Shown: piece by piece, positions 8,130 through 29,832 of the stretch
How the letters are laid out: the number at the start of each line of letters is the position of its first letter
How positions within the stretch are numbered: position 1 is the stretch's first letter
Notes under the pieces: model-generated
Seen by the model: only the letters and a program-made list of their open reading frames with translations
Databases searched by the model: none
Told to the model about the DNA's origin: nothing
Made by a program: the position numbers and the translations under genes
Assembly: GCA_030590985.1 (NCBI GenBank)
Contig: JAUVBX010000002.1
Span: 1 to 48,962 of the forward strand
Reading direction: 5' to 3'
Origin: Lutibacter sp.
GTDB taxonomy: Bacteria; Bacteroidota; Bacteroidia; Flavobacteriales; Flavobacteriaceae
DNA: 48,962 nucleotides

Positions 8130-9161
8130 CTATTCGACAGGATCAACATAACCTTCTTTATCCTTTTTGCCAAATAGAGAGAAATGTACAAAACGTTTGG
8201 GGTGTTCTTTCATCTCATGAAGTAGTTCTTCTAATTCTTTAGATGCATTGGTTAGGTTGGTGTACATTTTTTCATCTTTTAGTAATTTTCCTAAACTGCC
8301 TTCTCCTTTGTCTAAGTTTGTGACAATAGAATTGATATTAGTGATGGTTGTTTGTAATTCTTTCACGGTTTTAGCAATTTCAGCTTCCGTTAGTTCTTTA
8401 TTTAGGTTTTGAGTAAGCTCTGAAAACTCGTTGGTCACTTGCTCAGCATTAGTCAATGTTTTTGCTAGGGTTTCTTTATTTTGTTCTAGCATTTCGTTGA
8501 GATTGTTTGAGATTGCTTTAAAACTAGTCATAGATTGATCTAGTTGTAGCATACTATTTTTTAAATGTTTTCTTGTAGGTGTATCTAATATATCGTTAAA
8601 ACCAACTAATAATGAATCGGCTGATACAATAACACTTTCTAATTTTGCTGATAAAGGGTTTAGTTTTTCACCCATCGATGAGAATATATCCGATTCAATA
8701 CTACCTTTTAGATAATCACCAGATTTGGCTTTTTCTCCTTCATAAGAGGGAATTATGGCTATAGCTTTGCCACCCATTAAACCATCGCTGTAAATTTTTA
8801 CTTCAGAATTTTTAGAAAACTCGAAATCGGCTTCCATACTAAATTCCACAATTAACTGTCCTTTTTTTTGAGGATCTGTGTTAAAGGTAATGTTTTGTAC
8901 TTTACCTACTTGTAGACCATTAATAGTGACTTTGCTTGCAGAGTTCAGACCCTGAACATTTTGGTATTTTGCAAAATAGGTAGGGATATTTCCATCGAAT
9001 AGATTCTTACCTTTCATGTAGTTGTAGCCCCATATAAACAGAGCAAGGGCAGCGATAAATACAACTCCTGTCTTAAATTCTCTTGATAGTGTCAAAACTT
9101 TTTTATTTAGTACTAATAGACGTATGTTCTTTATAATTCCATCATCCAACAGCGAATACAA
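8130..9161 (-). CDS. MlaD/MCE family protein
   Basis: Single N-terminal TM followed by YFAKYQNVQGLNSASKVTINGLQVGKV MCE core and long coiled-coil C-terminus. Exact start uncertain. Confidence 0.88.
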   Translation of the reverse strand: MYSLLDDGIIKNIRLLVLNKKVLTLSREFKTGVVFIAALALFIWGYNYMKGKNLFDGNIPTYFAKYQNVQGLNSASKVTINGLQVGKVQNITFNTDPQKKGQLIVEFSMEADFEFSKNSEVKIYSDGLMGGKAIAIIPSYEGEKAKSGDYLKGSIESDIFSSMGEKLNPLSAKLESVIVSADSLLVGFNDILDTPTRKHLKNSMLQLDQSMTSFKAISNNLNEMLEQNKETLAKTLTNAEQVTNEFSELTQNLNKELTEAEIAKTVKELQTTITNINSIVTNLDKGEGSLGKLLKDEKMYTNLTNASKELEELLHEMKEHPKRFVHFSLFGKKDKEGYVDPVE

Positions 9162-10291: not shown

Positions 10292-10476
10292 TATATTTTT
10301 AAGATATTGTTGGGGATTTACCCACATATTTTAATTATTTTTGACCAACGTTTAAGATTCTTACAATTATCAAGCCATAGAGATGTAAAAGCATTGATAA
10401 GATTTTAAGAACAATACGAAATTACCATATTTTTAATTAGATTTTAGTAAGCTAAAAAATAGTAATTCACAAGTAT

Positions 10477-13134
10477 TTGTTAATAAAAAGCAAGCATATT
10501 ATATTATTTTTTACCATTGTCTTTCTCGATTTTTCGAGTATATACGCACAGGTGTTGGGCAGTGTAAATAAAGAAAAAAAGACTCAAAAAATAGATTTAG
10601 AAGCAAAAGTATTTAAATCTAACGCTTCTTTATTGAAAAAGGATACAATACATGTAGATAGTATTCCAGTTAAAACACCTAAAGAAACTTTAAGTGATAT
10701 TATTGATCATTCAGCAGAAGACTATATTCAAATTGATGTGGTGAAAAATACTACAACACTTTATAATAATGCAAAGTTACATTATGAAGATGTAGATTTG
10801 GAAGCAGGTATTATTATTATTGATTACAAAAAGAATTTGATTATTGCTAGAGGTATAAAAGATAGTACTGGTTACACACAAATACCTTATTTTAAACAAG
10901 GAATCGAAGAGTCAACTCAAGACTCAATAATGGTAAATTATAATACTGAAAAAGCTTTAATTTGGGGATTAAATTCAGAGCAAGATAATGGAATCATTAT
11001 GGGTAGTGGTATTAGTAAGAAGGTAAATGATTCAACTGTCTATGTAAGAGATATAGTAATAACTACCTCAAAAAAGAAAAATCCAGATTATTATATAGGG
11101 ATTAACAAAGCGAAGATTATTCCTAATAAGAAAATAATTGCGGGAGCTTCACAATTGTTTATCGCTGATGTTCCTACGCCAGTTTGGATTCCTTTTGCTT
11201 ATTTTCCATTAACTCGTACACGAACATCTGGTATTTTAATGCCAACTTGGGGTGAGTCGTCACAGCAAGGTTATTTTTTACAAAATGGAGGCTATTATCT
11301 GGCTTTAAATGATTATTTCGATTTAGCACTAACAGGAGATATTTATACGAATGGAAGCTGGGGTTTAAGAGCTAAAAGTAATTATTCTTTACGGTATAAA
11401 TTTAATGGAAATATTGGTTTTAATTATGATAATGTTATCTATAGTCTTAGAGGTTTTGATGATTATAGTAAGAGTTCAAATTACAATATCAGATGGACGC
11501 ATAGTCAAGATGCAACAGCCAACCCCAATGCGCGATTGTCTGCATCTGTAAACTTAGGTAGTAGTAAGTATTATAGAGAATCTTTAAATGAATACGGTAC
11601 CAATTCTTATTTAAAAAATCAATTAAGCTCATCTGTGTCTTTTTCGAAACGTTTTGTTGGAACTCCTTTCAATTTGAGTTTGTCTGCAACGCATACACAG
11701 GTTACAGATACGGAAAGTATCACTATGTCTTTACCTTCTTTGCAATTGAGTATGGATCGTATTTATCCATTTGCTCCTAAAAATGGATCCTCAAAAAACG
11801 CATTACATAAATTGAGTCTGAACTACAATCTCTCGGGAGATTACCGTATTAATACTAAAGATGAATATTTCTTTAAAAAGGAAATGTTTGAAGGGGCAAA
11901 ATCAGGGGTAAAGCATAGTGCTACTCTGAGTACTAATATGAAATTATTTAATTATTTTACTGTCAACCCAAGTGCTAATTATAAAGAAACATGGTATTTT
12001 GATTATATTGATAAGAAATTCAATTCAGATGAAAATATAGTTGTTTCAGATACAGTAAATGCTTTTAAAGCCCTAAGAGAATACAGTACTGGGGTATCAT
12101 TATCTACTAATATTTATGGAACATTTAAGTTTAAAAAAGGACGATTAAAAGCGATACGTCACACGGTTCGTCCCTCTGTTTCTTATAGTTACCGTCCTGA
12201 TTTTAGTTTTTATGATGAAGAAGTTTATAATCCTGAAACAGATAATGTAGAAACTTATTCACCTTATCAAGGAGGTATTTATGGGGTGCCAGGTAAAGGA
12301 ATATCAAATAGTATTGGTCTAAGTTTGAATAATACTTTTGAAGCCAAAGTAATGTCAAAAGATTCAACTCAAACTGAAGCAAAAAAAATAAACTTATTGA
12401 ACAATTTAAATTTTTCTACAAGTTATAATATAGCTGCAGATTCGTTACGCTGGTCACCAGTTAGTATGACAACAGGTGCTAGTTTATTTAAAAACAAAAT
12501 GCGTATAAATGTCAATGCTAGTTTAGATCCGTATGCCATTAATGTAAATGGCAGTAGAGTTAACCAGTTTAATATTGATAACGGTGGTAGTCTATTTAGA
12601 TTGACGCGAGCAGGCGTAACAATGAGTTATAGCCTGTCTGATAAAAGTTTTAAAAGGGAAGAAGGTAAAACGGGTTCAAGTAAGACTAATGATATTATAA
12701 ACGAAGATATTGGAATAATAGATGATGATTTGCAAAATCAGGGCGATAGAAAAAATTCGACTGAACAAAAAACAAAGAAAACAAAATTGTATTATTCCAA
12801 AATTCCATGGAATCTAAGTATGTCTTACACACTACAATATGCCAATGGACAACGACAGAATGAAATTTCATCAAATTCATTGATGTTTAATGGTGATTTT
12901 GAGTTAAGTCCAAAATGGGGTGTAGGTTTTAATTCTAGTTATGATTTTAAAGGACGTGGTCTTGGATATACAAGACTAAATTTTCAACGCGATTTAGATA
13001 GTTGGAAAATGAGTTTTAGTTGGGTACCTTTTGGAACTAGAAAAACCTATTATTTCTTTATTGGTGTAAAATCATCAGTATTAGGAGATCTAAAATATGA
13101 TAAACGAAAATTACCAGACAAGCGTTTGTTTTAA
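10477..13134 (+). CDS. lptD: LPS-assembly protein LptD (OstA-like + beta-barrel)
   Basis: OstA-like N-terminus (YNNAKLHYEDVDLEAGIIIIDY), PVWIPFAYFPLTRTRTSGILMPTWGESSQQGYFLQNGGYY LptD motif, C-terminal barrel. Apparent TTG start. Confidence 0.9.
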   Translation: MLIKSKHIILFFTIVFLDFSSIYAQVLGSVNKEKKTQKIDLEAKVFKSNASLLKKDTIHVDSIPVKTPKETLSDIIDHSAEDYIQIDVVKNTTTLYNNAKLHYEDVDLEAGIIIIDYKKNLIIARGIKDSTGYTQIPYFKQGIEESTQDSIMVNYNTEKALIWGLNSEQDNGIIMGSGISKKVNDSTVYVRDIVITTSKKKNPDYYIGINKAKIIPNKKIIAGASQLFIADVPTPVWIPFAYFPLTRTRTSGILMPTWGESSQQGYFLQNGGYYLALNDYFDLALTGDIYTNGSWGLRAKSNYSLRYKFNGNIGFNYDNVIYSLRGFDDYSKSSNYNIRWTHSQDATANPNARLSASVNLGSSKYYRESLNEYGTNSYLKNQLSSSVSFSKRFVGTPFNLSLSATHTQVTDTESITMSLPSLQLSMDRIYPFAPKNGSSKNALHKLSLNYNLSGDYRINTKDEYFFKKEMFEGAKSGVKHSATLSTNMKLFNYFTVNPSANYKETWYFDYIDKKFNSDENIVVSDTVNAFKALREYSTGVSLSTNIYGTFKFKKGRLKAIRHTVRPSVSYSYRPDFSFYDEEVYNPETDNVETYSPYQGGIYGVPGKGISNSIGLSLNNTFEAKVMSKDSTQTEAKKINLLNNLNFSTSYNIAADSLRWSPVSMTTGASLFKNKMRINVNASLDPYAINVNGSRVNQFNIDNGGSLFRLTRAGVTMSYSLSDKSFKREEGKTGSSKTNDIINEDIGIIDDDLQNQGDRKNSTEQKTKKTKLYYSKIPWNLSMSYTLQYANGQRQNEISSNSLMFNGDFELSPKWGVGFNSSYDFKGRGLGYTRLNFQRDLDSWKMSFSWVPFGTRKTYYFFIGVKSSVLGDLKYDKRKLPDKRLF

Positions 13135-24531: not shown

Positions 24532-25137
24532 ATGAAAACACTTATTAAGAATAGTATCCCTTTTTTGATTGCCTTACTAATTTTAGTTGTGATTGTATTT
24601 AAAAACCGAGATTCTAAACCTGTTTTAAATGAATTATTCACACTAAACTTGGCTCAAAAGGAAAATATTCCTCTAAATGAAATCATACCAGAAGGAACTG
24701 AAATAAGCATCCTAATTGACAAGAGTGATTTTCAATTACATATTTACACCGCTGATACGCTTGTAGAAACCTATCCAGTTGTTTTAGGTGGAAATCCCAT
24801 AGATGATAAACTACGTGAAGGTGATCAATGCACACCTGAAGGCACTTTTAAAATAGTGAGCAAATATCCCCATGGAAGTTGGTCAAAATTTATTTGGATC
24901 AACTATCCAACTACTGATTCTTGGAGGAAACACAAAAAAGCTAAAGCGAATGGAGTTATCTCAAAAAATGCAACAATAGGTGGTGAAATTGGTATTCATG
25001 GACTTCCAGAAGGTACAGATGTAATGATTGAAACCCGTATCAACTGGACATTGGGCTGTATTTCACTAACAAATAATGATGTGAATGAAATTTATCCTTT
25101 TATTGATAAAAATACGGTGATTAAGATTCGAAAATAG
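24532..25137 (+). CDS. L,D-transpeptidase, YkuD/ErfK-like
   Basis: ISILIDKSDFQLHIYTADTLVETYPVVLGGNP...TPEGTFKIVSKYPHGSW...GGEIGIHGLPEGTD...NWTLGCISLTNNDVNEIY. Confidence 0.88.
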   Translation: MKTLIKNSIPFLIALLILVVIVFKNRDSKPVLNELFTLNLAQKENIPLNEIIPEGTEISILIDKSDFQLHIYTADTLVETYPVVLGGNPIDDKLREGDQCTPEGTFKIVSKYPHGSWSKFIWINYPTTDSWRKHKKAKANGVISKNATIGGEIGIHGLPEGTDVMIETRINWTLGCISLTNNDVNEIYPFIDKNTVIKIRK

Positions 25138-25177: not shown

Positions 25178-25438
25178 TTATTTATCAATGTTCCTATACT
25201 GATTATGATTCAACTTATCCAAAAGCTCTTGATAAATGTTTTTTGTTGTGGAATTTTGTGGGAGATAATCACTTAAAGAGAATTGATTTTTAACTGGATT
25301 AAAAATTAATGTAGCATTAGATTTATTATTGTTAGATATTTTTATTAATTTACGTTTAGCTTTATCTATTAAACTCTCTTGTTTCGCATTATAGTTATAG
25401 CCAATTACTCCTAATATTTTATTTACATTTTTATTCAT
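25178..25438 (-). CDS. Hypothetical small protein
   Basis: ORF of about 86 aa (MNKNVNKILGVIGYNYNAKQ...), Lys/Asn rich, no recognised family; coding status only moderately supported. Confidence 0.5.
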   Translation of the reverse strand: MNKNVNKILGVIGYNYNAKQESLIDKAKRKLIKISNNNKSNATLIFNPVKNQFSLSDYLPQNSTTKNIYQELLDKLNHNQYRNIDK

Positions 25439-25482
25439 ATCGTTTAATTTAAAATTACGAATCAATTTTTATATACATATTT

Positions 25483-25593
25483 AAGAAAGCGGTTTATCTC
25501 TTGCAATTGGTGGCACTGCCCGTTCCAATCACTCAATATACTGTTTTACATAAATGCAAACTAAATATTGTTTGTCGGATTTTCCGCTTTCTT
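25483..25593. repeat. Inverted-repeat-bounded intergenic segment
   Basis: Perfect 10-bp arms AAGAAAGCGG (25483-25492) / CCGCTTTCTT (25584-25593), with inner ATTGG...CCAAT; begins 2 bp 3' of the 25595-26206 ORF stop on the minus strand. Confidence 0.6.
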
Positions 25594-25594
25594 T

Positions 25595-26206
25595 TTAAAA
25601 TTCTACTAAACCAAAAGAGCATAATTTATTCTCAAATTCATCTAAGGTTAATTCATTCATCTTTACTTTAATAAATCCTTTTACTAATTCCATTGTTGTA
25701 ACTAAAGAATACTTACCTGCGTCTGCATATCCAATTTGGTCTAATGTAAAAGGAACATAGTCCTTTTCTTTATAAGACTTATTATTGTCGTGATTTATTA
25801 TAAAAACGCCAAAAGCGTTTTCTTTCTTATGCCTTCTTACTTCTAAATGTTTCGTTATTTGCCTTGTCTTGTTATCTGTTGGGTGTTTCTTTTTTGTTCC
25901 TGTAACCTCAATTATTATTATTTTGTCGGGTAGAAAAATTCTAATATCGTCCTTTTTTAATTGTTTTCCTACTTTACGAACCTTTTCAAACCCAATGTCC
26001 TTAAAATACATTTTTATATATTGTTCTAATTCATCATTACTTATTTTAGGATGTATTATACCTCTTAAAAATTCATATTTATCGGATAATGTTTTTAATT
26101 TTCTATTTATCTTATTTAAGTCATTCTTTAGGCTTTTTCTCTCATCAAGTAATTCTGATATATCAGGGAAGTCCTTTGTCAAATTATGATACTCTTTTTC
26201 ATTCAT
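25595..26206 (-). CDS. Uncharacterised protein: N-terminal coiled coil plus possible PD-(D/E)XK-like domain
   Basis: Coiled-coil-like ISELLDERKSLKNDLNKINRKLKTLSDKYEF; ELEQYIKMYFKDIGFEKV...KKDDIRIFLPDKIIIIEVTGTKKK resembles the helix-D-ExK core, but with EVT instead of ExK. Confidence 0.6.
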   Translation of the reverse strand: MNEKEYHNLTKDFPDISELLDERKSLKNDLNKINRKLKTLSDKYEFLRGIIHPKISNDELEQYIKMYFKDIGFEKVRKVGKQLKKDDIRIFLPDKIIIIEVTGTKKKHPTDNKTRQITKHLEVRRHKKENAFGVFIINHDNNKSYKEKDYVPFTLDQIGYADAGKYSLVTTMELVKGFIKVKMNELTLDEFENKLCSFGLVEF

Positions 26207-26207
26207 A

Positions 26208-26531
26208 CTATTTTTCTAAATCCTTTGATTTTTTATGTCCTATAAATATACTGCTTACAAGTAATATTACCCAAATGACATCTACTACATTCCAAACAGT
26301 TCTACCAAGTGCTAATTTAAAGAATGGGTTAATTAACAGTACAGAACCAAACCAAATAATCATAAAGGTTTTGCTTCCCTTTTCAAGTTCCTTATACCCT
26401 AAGATTGCAAAACCTATCATTCCTATAAAACGCATTATTTCATAGTAATTATAGGGCATTTTGAATAATGCACCTATGAAAAGGAGTGAAAGTGTTATTT
26501 TAATTATGTTTTTTATAAGAAAATCAATCAT
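26208..26531 (-). CDS. Small multi-spanning membrane protein (possibly DUF6804-like)
   Basis: Three to four hydrophobic segments; NPFFKLALGRTVWNVVDVIWVILL. DUF resemblance is from memory only. Confidence 0.55.
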   Translation of the reverse strand: MIDFLIKNIIKITLSLLFIGALFKMPYNYYEIMRFIGMIGFAILGYKELEKGSKTFMIIWFGSVLLINPFFKLALGRTVWNVVDVIWVILLVSSIFIGHKKSKDLEK

Positions 26532-26537
26532 CTTGTT

Positions 26538-27143
26538 TTATAGTTTTTTTTCATTTATTCTTTTAAGTATTTCAATTCTGTGATTTAAATACCATTTTAG
26601 ATTACGAAATTTTTCCCAATTTATTTTTCCATTATTGTTGTAGTAATAACTTGTTCCTGTTTCATTAGATTTTATTTCAACAGAGTTAAACTCTTTTATA
26701 TCATTTTTTTTTAATTCATCAAGTTCAGCTAAGCAGTTTTCGTAAAAATCCAATAGGTTTTGACTATAAATGATTGAGTCAAATTCATATTGTCCAATAA
26801 ATATTTTAAAATTATTTTTGTAGCTATGTTTTGGTATTTTTCCTTTTTTCTTTTTAATATATTTACTTAGATAATCATTAATTTTCAACCCAAACGCACT
26901 TGTTTCGTTATTATTAATTGTTATCTCATTTTTTCTTTCAAAATCAATACTTAATAAATATGAAATTAAAACCACATCAATCACCATTAAAGATATTATA
27001 ATCCAAAATGGAAGATCAAGAATGTACAAGTAATACAAAAATAGAGATGCAAAAAAAATTAGGATTCTAATAAATGCACTAGATGAAATGAAATATCCTT
27101 TTTCATATTCAGATTTAGATTTTCGATAATAAATTTCTTGCAT
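26538..27143 (-). CDS. Hypothetical membrane-anchored protein
   Basis: Two N-terminal TM segments (ILIFFASLFLYYLYILDLPFWIIISLMVIDVVLISYLL) then a soluble domain; 6 bp from the next ORF, so likely an operon. Confidence 0.6.
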   Translation of the reverse strand: MQEIYYRKSKSEYEKGYFISSSAFIRILIFFASLFLYYLYILDLPFWIIISLMVIDVVLISYLLSIDFERKNEITINNNETSAFGLKINDYLSKYIKKKKGKIPKHSYKNNFKIFIGQYEFDSIIYSQNLLDFYENCLAELDELKKNDIKEFNSVEIKSNETGTSYYYNNNGKINWEKFRNLKWYLNHRIEILKRINEKKL

Positions 27144-27201
27144 TTTTATATTTTTTTGTTATGAGTAATTCTGTTTTTCTAATGAACGCCAACGTTTTTG
27201 A

Positions 27202-27319
27202 ATATGGTGCGTTTGGCATTTCAACGCTCCAATATTTCAAATTACTACTATGTTTATTTATTACTAATATATTCATTTCTATCACTATCCGCCAAATGCA
27301 CTATATTTTTTGTTGTAGC
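27202..27319. repeat. Long imperfect palindrome, cassette-boundary-like
   Basis: Arms ATATGGTGCGTTTGGC (27202-27217) and GCCAAATGCACTATAT (27291-27306) are imperfect reverse complements; flanked by CAACG (left) and TGTTGTAGC (27311-27319, right). Confidence 0.6.
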
Positions 27320-27329
27320 TAGTTCATAA

Positions 27330-28817
27330 TCAATCAAGGCTGTTAATATTTCGTTTAATAAGATGTTTGATTTTAGGATCTAGTACATTAAAGATGCGTT
27401 CACCTTTTGGACCTAATTTATCATCCTCATTAATTAATCTATATTTTATCATTAATTCAATTTTTCTTACACACCAATTTGTTTTTTGATTAAAAACAGC
27501 ACTAAGTTCACGTATTGTAAAACTAATTCTTTTTGTCCTTAGAATTAAATTTATCATACTAATAACATCTTTATTTTTACCTGTTCTAGATGGGTACAAC
27601 GATAAATAATCATATCTCTTAGCAAATTTAATCAAGCCTTTTGACACCGAATTACTATCAAAATATTTTATGTCAGAATTTGATGTTTGAATATCATATA
27701 TATCTGACATACATGATATTAAATCTCTAGGTGAATGATTTGATATTTCAATAATTTCATCAATATCATTCTTGTTTTTAAACAAATCATTAAATTTTTT
27801 TTTATCACTTGTGAAATATCTTACTCGTTTATCAATTAGAGGAACCATATCCGATTTTTTCCAACTAATATCAATTTCTTTAAACTTATCAAAACGAACT
27901 GTTTTTGATAAAATTGGTTTTACTTCAGTCCATAGACTAAATGCTATTGCAATATCATTCTGTAATAAAAGTTCAGTATCGGTTAAAATGTCTTTCGTGA
28001 AAGCTGCAATTTTATTTACATCATGGTTTAATTCTTGAAATTCATCAACTTTATCGAAAAGTATCACTGAAGAATTAAAATAAGATTTTTGGGCAATAGA
28101 ATTGATTCTATTTAATAATTCTTTTAAATGCCTTTTATTAGTAGTTAGTTGTAGCTCTGCATTTGAGGCATCAATATTAGGTTCCTCTATTTCACCAATA
28201 AATTCCGTGAAATCTCTAATATTTACATCGCCTAAGCCAATTGATTCTGAAATTATTTTTGAAGTAATCATAACGCCCGTATTGATAATTGAATTTGTGG
28301 GTTTGATAAATCCATTAAATAATCTAATGAAAAAGTTTTTTACTTTGACTTTCTTAATATTTTCATATCTATTTTCATACTCAACTCTTGTAAGAGGTTT
28401 GAAAAACAATTTAATAAGAAGCCCCAAGCTTTCTTTATCCTCTGTGTCTAACTTTTTTAGAATATATTTATTCTTGTCAAGAAACAGTACAAATTTTGTT
28501 ACAAACTCTGTTAAAATAAGATTTAATAGAGGGATTTTGTTGTTTGTTAGAGCTATATCATCGAATCTATCAATAATAATTGTGAGTACCTTATCTTTTT
28601 CTAAATCTGATTTTAATTCATATATTATTGATGATTTACCATGACCTCTTTGTCCTAAGATAAATCTGCTAGTGCCTGATTTCAAATCATCTAACAGTGT
28701 TTTGTAAAATAATGGTGGGTAAAATATTTGAGAAAGGAAATCTAATTCCTCCTCAGCAGAAAATTTAGAAAAGGGGTTCTTATTAAACCCCATTTTTTCA
28801 TTAAGAGTATTTTTCAT
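27330..28817 (-). CDS. P-loop NTPase with C-terminal winged-helix-like region (possibly Sll1717-type ATPase)
   Basis: Walker A GQRGHGKSS, Walker B SVILFDKVDEF; C-terminal ISFTIRELSAVFNQKTNWCVRKIELMIKYRLINEDDKLGPKGERIFNVL looks like a wHTH. Confidence 0.75.
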   Translation of the reverse strand: MKNTLNEKMGFNKNPFSKFSAEEELDFLSQIFYPPLFYKTLLDDLKSGTSRFILGQRGHGKSSIIYELKSDLEKDKVLTIIIDRFDDIALTNNKIPLLNLILTEFVTKFVLFLDKNKYILKKLDTEDKESLGLLIKLFFKPLTRVEYENRYENIKKVKVKNFFIRLFNGFIKPTNSIINTGVMITSKIISESIGLGDVNIRDFTEFIGEIEEPNIDASNAELQLTTNKRHLKELLNRINSIAQKSYFNSSVILFDKVDEFQELNHDVNKIAAFTKDILTDTELLLQNDIAIAFSLWTEVKPILSKTVRFDKFKEIDISWKKSDMVPLIDKRVRYFTSDKKKFNDLFKNKNDIDEIIEISNHSPRDLISCMSDIYDIQTSNSDIKYFDSNSVSKGLIKFAKRYDYLSLYPSRTGKNKDVISMINLILRTKRISFTIRELSAVFNQKTNWCVRKIELMIKYRLINEDDKLGPKGERIFNVLDPKIKHLIKRNINSLD

Positions 28818-28854
28818 ATATGTTTTTTTTCATTTAATTTTTTATTCAAAATTA

Positions 28855-28882
28855 GCTACAACATCTGTATAAACACAATGGC
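28855..28882 (+). repeat. Motif related to the 27291-27319 palindrome arm, inverted orientation
   Basis: GCTACAACATCTGTATAAACACAATGGC versus reverse complement of 27291-27319, GCTACAACAAAAAATATAGTGCATTTGGC. Confidence 0.5.
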
Positions 28883-29067: not shown

Positions 29068-29832
29068 ATGCGTACAAAGATAGTAGCCGGAAACTGGAAA
29101 ATGAATTTGGATGTAGATGCATCAAAACAATTAGCCAAAGATATTTCTGTAGATATTCAAAATCTTGAAACCAATAATACACGAATTATTATCGCACCAA
29201 CTGCGACAAACTTATATCCTGTTTCTCATCAAGTAGGGATGGATACTCGTATAGAACTTGCTGCACAAAACATGCACCAAGCCAAAAACGGTGCTTTTAC
29301 TGGTGAGATTTCTGCAGAAATGATTCGCAGTGTTGGTGTAACTAATGTTATTCTTGGGCATTCTGAACGTCGAGCTTATTTCGGTGAACATAATGATACA
29401 CTTGCTGAAAAAGTAACAACAGCATTACAAAATAAAATGGAAGTTATTTTTTGTTTTGGAGAACATTTAAAACAAAGACAAAAAAAACTACATTTTTCTA
29501 CCGTACTTAGTCAAATAAATGAAGGACTGTTTCATTTGAACAAAGAAGACTGGAAACACATTATTCTTGCTTATGAACCTGTTTGGGCTATTGGAACAGG
29601 AGAGACAGCCACACCCGAACAAGCCCAAGAAATGCATGAGTATATTCGAACAATTATTTCAGGAAAATACGATAAAGAAACAGCACAAAATGTTTCAATT
29701 TTATATGGTGGAAGTGTAAAACCATCTAACGCCAAAGAAATTTTTTCACAAGCTGATGTAGATGGTGGATTAATTGGTGGTGCGGCCTTAAACTCTACTG
29801 ATTTTGTGGCTTTGGTTAAAGCTATTCAATAG
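29068..29832 (+). CDS. tpiA: Triose-phosphate isomerase
   Basis: MRTKIVAGNWKMN, ILGHSERRAYFGE, AYEPVWAIGTGETATPEQAQE, ILYGGSVKPSN. Start at ATG 29068. Confidence 0.97.
   Translation: MRTKIVAGNWKMNLDVDASKQLAKDISVDIQNLETNNTRIIIAPTATNLYPVSHQVGMDTRIELAAQNMHQAKNGAFTGEISAEMIRSVGVTNVILGHSERRAYFGEHNDTLAEKVTTALQNKMEVIFCFGEHLKQRQKKLHFSTVLSQINEGLFHLNKEDWKHIILAYEPVWAIGTGETATPEQAQEMHEYIRTIISGKYDKETAQNVSILYGGSVKPSNAKEIFSQADVDGGLIGGAALNSTDFVALVKAIQ

What the first reader, a model, noticed from the sequence alone, without database searches (positions are those of the whole stretch)
25178..28882. Accessory block of five uncharacterised minus-strand ORFs centred on a P-loop ATPase
Seen: the ORFs here are all on one strand and none matches a housekeeping gene, while both flanks are core genes (an L,D-transpeptidase, then tpiA-prmA). 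The contents are a 495-aa NTPase (Walker A GQRGHGKSS, Walker B ILFDKVDEF) with a wHTH-like tail, a tightly packed three-gene operon (gaps of 6 and 1 bp) of two membrane proteins and a possible nuclease-fold protein, and a small ORF. Inference: ATPase, membrane effectors and a nuclease-like protein in an island are reminiscent of anti-phage or conflict systems, and this is the best candidate in the window for something undescribed. Function is not established.
Basis: partly seen in the sequence, partly recalled or inferred. Interest (0 to 1): 0.7.

Follow-up and report, generated by a model that had tools for sequence, protein, structure and literature searches.

The report
Anti-phage ATPase in an integron-like cassette
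The block is not one new defence system but a small cluster of swappable gene cassettes; its ATPase belongs to an already tested anti-phage family (DS-41), and it is carried by an integron-like gene-capture system that turns out to be widespread in flavobacteria, where integrons were thought to be almost absent.

Summary
In detail: five minus-strand ORFs lie between ldt and tpiA. Two same-genus relatives have an empty site, so the block is accessory. The 495-aa ATPase passes the curated cut-off of NCBIfam NF053860 (DS41_1_antiphage), the family of DS-41, validated against phages in E. coli. The three-gene operon is a separate unit: nuc203 (PD-(D/E)XK-like), DUF6804 and a membrane protein.

The main find is what carries the genes. 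A 130-bp non-coding element (27187-27319) follows the ATPase. It is a structured repeat, present in 49 of 61 sampled Flavobacteriaceae genera, often in one-way arrays downstream of a tyrosine recombinase. Cassettes there are bracketed by their own exactly complementary end boxes: 48 of 73 consecutive element pairs, against 6 of 635 non-consecutive pairs. The ATPase has such a bracket too (GTTGTAGC/GCTACAAC), and the same bracket encloses its homologues inside arrays of two other genera. These are integron-type cassettes with attC-like sites. The recombinase lacks the IntI-specific insertion and carries an N-terminal extension instead, so this is integron-like rather than a canonical integron. 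The window holds a cluster without an integrase. Phage defence and recombination are inferred here, not tested.

The parts
24532..25137 (+). ldt (L,D-transpeptidase), left core flank
   Evidence: YkuD E 1e-21; next to tpiA with a 64-84 bp gap in relatives L064 and L068
25178..25465 (-). small ORF (95 aa), no family; 3' end of the cluster
   Evidence: no convincing hit in any library
25480..25597 (.). second palindromic spacer (GAAAGCGG...CCGCTTTC) directly 3' of nuc203; an internal structure of that gene's unit, not an attC-like site
   Evidence: homologue follows the 52%-identical nuc203 gene in L250 with compensatory stem changes, and there the attC-like site lies further down at 937-1042
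25595..26206 (-). nuc203: PD-(D/E)XK-like protein (D87, E100, T102/K, G103, Q116, K119)
   Evidence: motif conserved in 4 aligned homologues; weak Mrr_cat (E 0.058); homologues are followed by attC-like sites in L250 and L270
26208..26531 (-). DUF6804 membrane protein (107 aa)
   Evidence: PF20619 E 8e-27; homologues in or beside arrays in L252 and L253
26538..27143 (-). membrane-anchored protein (201 aa, N-terminal hydrophobic hairpin), no family
   Evidence: no plasmid match
27187..27319 (-). attC-like recombination site at the 3' end of the ATPase cassette (R'' GCTACAAC = 27319-27312; crossover GTT = 27193-27191)
   Evidence: dispersed family, covarying 17-bp stem, bottom-strand bias
27192..28861 (-). 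ATPase gene cassette, from the crossover in its 5' box GTTGTAGC (28862-28855) to the crossover of its attC-like site
   Evidence: inverted repeat 27311-27333 / 28841-28863; identical bracket around the homologues in L192 and L194
27330..28817 (-). DS-41 family AAA+/Orc1-Cdc6-like ATPase with C-terminal wHTH (495 aa)
   Evidence: NF053860 415.8 bits, over the cut-off; AlphaFold pLDDT 79, best PDB match Cdc6/Orc1 2qby E 3.4e-6
28855..28862 (-). 5' end box of the ATPase cassette (GTTGTAGC on the minus strand), complementary to its own R'' box
29068..29832 (+). tpiA, right core flank
   Evidence: synteny

Best explanation
The ldt-tpiA interval holds a small integrase-less cluster of gene cassettes that arrived through an integron-like system of Flavobacteriaceae. 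Shown: the ATPase is a DS-41 family protein and forms one cassette, made of a 5' box, the gene, and a 3' attC-like site whose outer box is the reverse complement of the 5' box. Inferred: a tyrosine recombinase of the XerA/IntI-like family seen beside related arrays folds the attC-like site on the bottom strand and exchanges circular cassettes at the GTT crossover. The nuc203-DUF6804-mem201 operon and the 95-aa ORF are probably the remains of separate cassettes. The ATPase most likely gives phage defence by itself: an Orc1/Cdc6-like AAA+ core with a DNA-binding wHTH that senses or blocks phage DNA replication (this last step is a guess, about 0.35). Its effector step is unknown.
For: Family: NF053860 over its curated cut-off; DS-41 is one of the systems validated against phages in E. 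coli MG1655 (PMC13092281). Mobility: empty site in L064 and L068, and another cassette (DUF3223 gene plus the same element) in the closest relative L067. Element: copies at 70-88% identity at 16 other loci in 13 genomes, almost always at the 3' end of a gene on one side; 6 pairs with changes on both sides, 0/500 shuffles as good; G.T pairs on the gene-antisense strand 55 against 2 on the other. Arrays: downstream of a recombinase in L178-L188; 56 of 61 elements have a same-strand gene near their inner edge, 55 of them within 34 bp. Cassette signature: consecutive end boxes fully complementary in 26/40 pairs (22/26 with gaps under 1.3 kb) against 3/431 non-consecutive, repeated on separate loci with 22/33 (21/23) against 3/204. 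The ATPase cassette itself: same bracket GTTGTAGCT/AGCTACAAC inside arrays of Oceanihabitans (L192) and Aurantibacter (L194); another bracket in Flavobacterium restrictum (L202).
Against: The window has no recombinase, and none was found in this genome at E <= 1e-60, but the genome is only 56% complete. The operon's expected partner box (complement of GTTGGCGTTC) was not found on its left side, so its cassette is not intact, or is not one. In the window the attC-like body differs from that of the same cassette in L192 and L194, although the end boxes are the same. Excision and insertion have not been seen. DS-41 membership rests on a profile, and identity to the E. coli plasmid homologues is only about 24%. 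No DS-41 mechanism is given in the main text I could read.
Confidence: 0.85

Rival explanations
1. The five ORFs are one multi-gene anti-phage system (ATPase sensor, membrane effectors, nuclease).
For: Same strand, contiguous, lower G+C, no housekeeping genes.
Against: ATPase homologues occur without the operon in at least 12 other genomes. nuc203 and DUF6804 homologues occur apart from it. A recombination site separates the ATPase from the operon.
Confidence: 0.06
2. The element is a transcription terminator or RNA element that happens to follow accessory genes, and the block arrived by ordinary homologous recombination between ldt and tpiA.
For: It sits at gene 3' ends and has a stem.
Against: Length about 130 nt with a conserved loop; per-cassette complementary end boxes; G.T bias favours the strand opposite to the transcript; arrays beside a recombinase.
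Confidence: 0.05
3. The cluster is a piece of a canonical integron (IntI-type) that automated tools have missed.
For: Same cassette logic. In a small tree IntI2 falls with the flavobacterial recombinases rather than with XerA/XerD, but with long branches.
Against: 0 of 151 genomes have an integrase over the TIGR02249 cut-off. The recombinases lack both insertions seen in IntI2 and have an extra N-terminal stretch of about 100 aa.
Confidence: 0.1
4. The ATPase has a host role (e.g. DNA replication or plasmid control) and the anti-phage label is carried over too far.
For: Orc1/Cdc6-like fold match with TM-scores below 0.5; distant from the E. coli homologues.
Against: Patchy distribution: 4 of 398 genomes of the order over the cut-off. 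Carried by cassettes and E. coli plasmids; in non-cassette loci some neighbours are type I R-M, SoFic and mad2 genes. Curated equivalog model passed.
Confidence: 0.2

Closest known systems
DS-41 (DefensePredictor system; NCBIfam NF053860 DS41_1_antiphage)
   Same: Full-length profile match over the curated cut-off, P-loop and wHTH layout, stand-alone gene in the homologues seen
   Different: About 24% identical to the E. coli plasmid homologues; carried in a cassette with an attC-like site; defence not tested in this clade
Chromosomal integrons and CALINs (attC clusters without integrase) with IntI
   Same: One-gene cassettes, 3' palindromic site, GTT crossover, cassette start complementary to its own R'' box, bottom-strand folding bias, one-way arrays next to a tyrosine recombinase
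   Different: Recombinase lacks the IntI-specific insertion, has an N-terminal extension, and points the same way as the cassettes; end boxes do not follow strict RYYYAAC/GTTRRRY
Vibrio sedentary chromosomal integrons as reservoirs of anti-phage systems (Darracq 2025, cited in PMC13064858)
   Same: Anti-phage gene family carried as a cassette
   Different: Bacteroidota, another recombinase family; here a cluster without an integrase
RdrA (RADAR) and NLR/STAND ATPases
   Same: Foldseek matches of the AAA+ core (8hr8, NLRs)
   Different: No sensor repeats, and no TIR, CARD or deaminase partner; TM-scores below 0.4

Membership tests
DS-41 (NF053860) | Full-length profile match over the curated cut-off | tested here: met
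   415.8 against 370 bits, profile 1-448 of 448
DS-41 (NF053860) | Walker A/B and conserved GxRGxGK, DxxDE and PRDL motifs | tested here: met
   invariant G55 R57 G58 G60 K61, D255 D258 E259, P363 R364 across 15 homologues
DS-41 (NF053860) | Protects against phage | not testable with these tools
   shown for DS-41 in E. coli (PMC13092281), not for this protein
Integron gene cassette | Gene followed by a palindromic attC site at its 3' end | tested here: met
   covarying stem
Integron gene cassette | Cassette 5' end complementary to its own R'' box | tested here: met
   window GTTGTAGC/GCTACAAC; arrays 26/40 and 22/33 consecutive against 3/431 and 3/204 non-consecutive
Integron gene cassette | Bottom strand folds better than top strand | tested here: met
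   G.T 55 against 2 in A2; the stem was predicted on that strand, which leans the count somewhat
Integron gene cassette | R boxes RYYYAAC / GTTRRRY | tested here: inconclusive
   AAC/GTT cores present; the rest varies, e.g. GTTGTAGC, GTTACCAC, GTTGGCAA
Integron (canonical) | Integrase beside the array | tested here: inconclusive
   present beside related arrays; none found in this 56%-complete genome
Integron (canonical) | Integrase with IntI-specific additional domain | tested here: not met
   0/151 genomes over the TIGR02249 cut-off; about 28 + 12 aa insertions of IntI2 absent
Integron (canonical) | attI site | not tested
   no search for a primary insertion site was made
Integron (canonical) | Site-specific recombination activity | not testable with these tools
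   needs a bench assay
PD-(D/E)XK nuclease (nuc203) | D...(D/E)XK catalytic motif in the fold | tested here: inconclusive
   D87, E100 and Q116 invariant, K102 replaced by T in the window protein; single-sequence fold unusable, pLDDT 45

The most novel reading that the evidence does not exclude
Flavobacteriaceae, and probably other Bacteroidota, carry a widespread, undescribed integron-like gene-capture system. Its dedicated XerA/IntI-like recombinase lacks the IntI-specific domain, and its own attC family builds arrays of a dozen or more cassettes. It moves anti-phage genes such as the DS-41 ATPase between genera, and integron finders that require the IntI domain would miss it.
Probability: 0.5. 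Interest if true: 0.88.

Novelty: new variant of a known kind. Interest (0 to 1): 0.7.

Why it matters
Integrons are held to be nearly absent from Bacteroidetes: the IntegronFinder 2.0 survey names a complete one there only in Salinibacter (PMC9024848). Here 49 of 61 sampled Flavobacteriaceae genera have the attC-like site and 38 of 61 have a related recombinase. If confirmed, one of the main families of marine and host-associated bacteria has a cassette-shuffling platform with a different enzyme. That would explain many accessory single genes in these genomes and give a direct way to harvest new functions, anti-phage genes among them. It also makes testable whether the IntI-specific domain is needed for attC recombination.

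Tried and rejected
PADLOC and PHROGs gave nothing for the ATPase. Rfam gave no real match to the element. PDB sequence search gave none for the ATPase. Single-sequence AlphaFold of nuc203 was unusable (pLDDT 45). I first took the second spacer (25480-25597) for another attC-like site and rejected that: model R1 does not match it, its arms pair within itself, and in L250 the real site lies beyond it. A single-system reading of all five ORFs was rejected. A search for the missing partner box of the operon cassette found none. No viral contig encodes nuc203; three encode distant ATPase relatives. Tree placement of the recombinase against IntI2, XerA and XerD is unsure because of long branches.
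Full report
1. The observation. All five minus-strand ORFs, the operon gaps (6 and 1 bp) and the Walker motifs are as described. The block is AT-richer than its flanks. The left flank is a YkuD L,D-transpeptidase, the right flank tpiA-prmA. In same-genus genomes the ldt-tpiA gap is 64 bp (L064) and 84 bp (L068). In others ldt is missing and pyrF adjoins tpiA. In the closest relative (L067) the interval is about 1 kb and holds a different gene. So the block is accessory. From shared contig lengths and record titles the genome belongs to Flavobacteriaceae; it is a 1.43-Mb, 56%-complete assembly.

2. What the genes are. The 495-aa ATPase matches NCBIfam NF053860 (DS41_1_antiphage) over the whole profile with 415.8 bits (cut-off 370); the wider family is ATPase_Sll1717. 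DS-41 is one of the systems that gave protection in E. coli MG1655 in the DefensePredictor study, and it has homologues as far away as Halobacteria (PMC13092281). An E. coli conjugative plasmid carries a distant homologue as a lone gene, also over the cut-off. An AlphaFold model from 15 homologues (mean pLDDT 79, weak only at 152-214) matches archaeal Cdc6/Orc1 bound to DNA (2qby, E 3.4e-6). Below that come NLR proteins, RdrA of RADAR and TnsC, all with query-normalised TM-scores below 0.4. With the conserved PRDL motif and a C-terminal winged helix this points to an Orc/Cdc6-like, DNA-binding AAA+ protein. That it senses phage DNA is inference.

3. nuc203 has D87, E100 and Q116 invariant in four homologues and T in place of the catalytic K102. 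The pattern is PD-(D/E)XK-like but not proven; the fold attempt failed. DUF6804 is a named family without function. The 201-aa membrane protein and the 95-aa ORF have no family.

4. The element. Between the ATPase stop and the next gene lies a stretch of about 130 bp that reappears in L067 directly after ldt, next to the different gene. A DNA search found it at 70-88% identity at 16 other loci in 13 genomes, at unrelated places. In nearly every case a gene on one strand ends within a few bp of the same side of the element. Seventeen copies share a 17-bp stem; six pairs have changes on both sides, and no shuffle of 500 did as well. G.T pairs are formed on the strand opposite to the gene 55 times against 2 for the other strand. 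That is the strand on which integron attC sites fold (general knowledge of integrons). The stem was predicted on that strand, so the count leans somewhat that way.

5. Arrays and recombinase. A covariance model (R1) found the element in 49 of 61 genomes of the family, each from a different genus, including two more places in the window's own genome, and in 15 of 41 genomes sampled over the phylum. The copies cluster beside tyrosine recombinases that had turned up with the integron-integrase profile TIGR02249, none of which passes that profile's cut-off (0 of 151 genomes). In L180, L183 and L188 a recombinase of about 380 aa is followed by 9-14 elements within 12-15 kb, all in one orientation, interleaved with small genes on the same strand as the recombinase. 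Of 61 elements in seven loci, 56 have a same-strand gene near their inner edge, 55 of them within 34 bp, and 2 an opposite-strand one. A related recombinase (E <= 1e-60) is in 38 of 61 genera. A 15-kb Cytophagales plasmid carries the recombinase and one element.

6. The test. In integrons the first bases of a cassette pair with the R'' box of its own attC, because both belong to one hairpin in the circular form. So in an array the outer flank of one element should be the reverse complement of the facing flank of the next element, and of no other. Six bases beyond the invariant GTT/AAC were compared. In L178-L188, 26 of 40 consecutive pairs match at all six (22 of 26 when less than 1.3 kb apart) against 3 of 431 non-consecutive pairs. 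In separate loci the figures are 22 of 33 (21 of 23) against 3 of 204. Most failures are long gaps where an element was probably missed. I know of no other mechanism that gives this pattern.

7. Back to the window. The ATPase has exactly this bracket: GTTGTAGC at 27312-27319 and GCTACAAC at 28855-28862. The cassette of L067 has another one, GTTAGCC/GGCTAAC. ATPase homologues with 67-68% identity lie inside arrays of Oceanihabitans (L192) and Aurantibacter (L194) with the same bracket GTTGTAGCT/AGCTACAAC, and a distant one in Flavobacterium restrictum (L202) with GTTAGCTGT/ACAGCTAAC. In Winogradskyella and Aquimarina only parts of the bracket remain, and elsewhere none. So the ATPase is a mobile cassette gene in this family. 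nuc203 has a 52% homologue inside an array (L250) and a longer relative, in two copies, in an array with recombinase (L270). DUF6804 homologues lie in or beside arrays (L252, L253). The operon and the 95-aa ORF therefore also look cassette-derived, but no intact bracket was found for them.

8. Known or not. It works like an integron cassette. It is not filed as a canonical integron, because the defining IntI-specific domain (definition in PMC9668308) is absent from the associated recombinases. They have neither of the two insertions of IntI2, and an additional N-terminal stretch of about 100 aa instead. NCBI names the relevant model 'site-specific tyrosine recombinase/integron integrase' (NF040815), so a link to integrons is already hinted at in annotation. 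The IntegronFinder 2.0 survey reports almost no integrons in Bacteroidetes, although reviews list Bacteroidota among phyla with some. Full-text searches found no paper on such arrays in Flavobacteriaceae. The library holds open-access papers only, so this is weak evidence of novelty. That chromosomal integrons store anti-phage systems is known from earlier work (Darracq 2025, cited in PMC13064858).

9. Content. Of 53 cassette genes in seven arrays, few are known: 35 Pfam families are hit, mostly once each, and one gene has a PADLOC hit. So arrays are not mainly stores of known defence genes. Where the ATPase lies outside arrays, some neighbours are type I R-M, SoFic and mad2 genes.

10. Verdict. 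The ATPase is a new member of a known anti-phage family. The five ORFs are not one system. The carrier is an integron-like variant that may be undescribed and is the part worth following.

Noticed in passing
L186:221-982 and 993-1135 (own genome, contig C28): Another single cassette in the window's own genome: a DUF5131 (phage Gp37/Gp68-type) gene with an R1 attC-like site directly at its 3' end, wedged against core genes.
   Followed up: partly
L185:6752-8877 (own genome, contig C11): AbiEii-family nucleotidyltransferase gene (type IV toxin-antitoxin) near a second R1 element at 8734-8877.
   Followed up: partly
L067:9122-9829: In the closest relative the same ldt-tpiA interval holds a DUF3223 cassette with the same element, so the interval is a repeated landing place.
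   Followed up: partly
L273:6870-8030 and 10451-10592: Small Chondrinema litorale plasmid (15 kb) with the recombinase, an acetyltransferase gene and an attC-like site: a possible plasmid-borne form of the system.
   Followed up: partly
L270:12062-15557: Two copies of a protein of about 600 aa with a nuc203-like C-terminal part, each followed by an attC-like site, in one array downstream of a recombinase.
   Followed up: partly
L178-L188 recombinases, residues 1-100: N-terminal extension of about 100 aa with no clear Pfam family; could replace the IntI-specific domain in holding the folded site.
   Followed up: no
L254:3095-4855 and L255:3173-4882: Uncharacterised proteins of about 580 aa on Synechocystis and Pantoea plasmids carry the nuc203 domain after an unknown N-terminal part; the Pantoea one lies near phage-plasmid genes.
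   Followed up: no
window 25480-25597: Palindromic spacer that travels with nuc203 (compensatory changes between the window and L250); function unknown, perhaps a terminator or regulatory RNA.
   Followed up: partly
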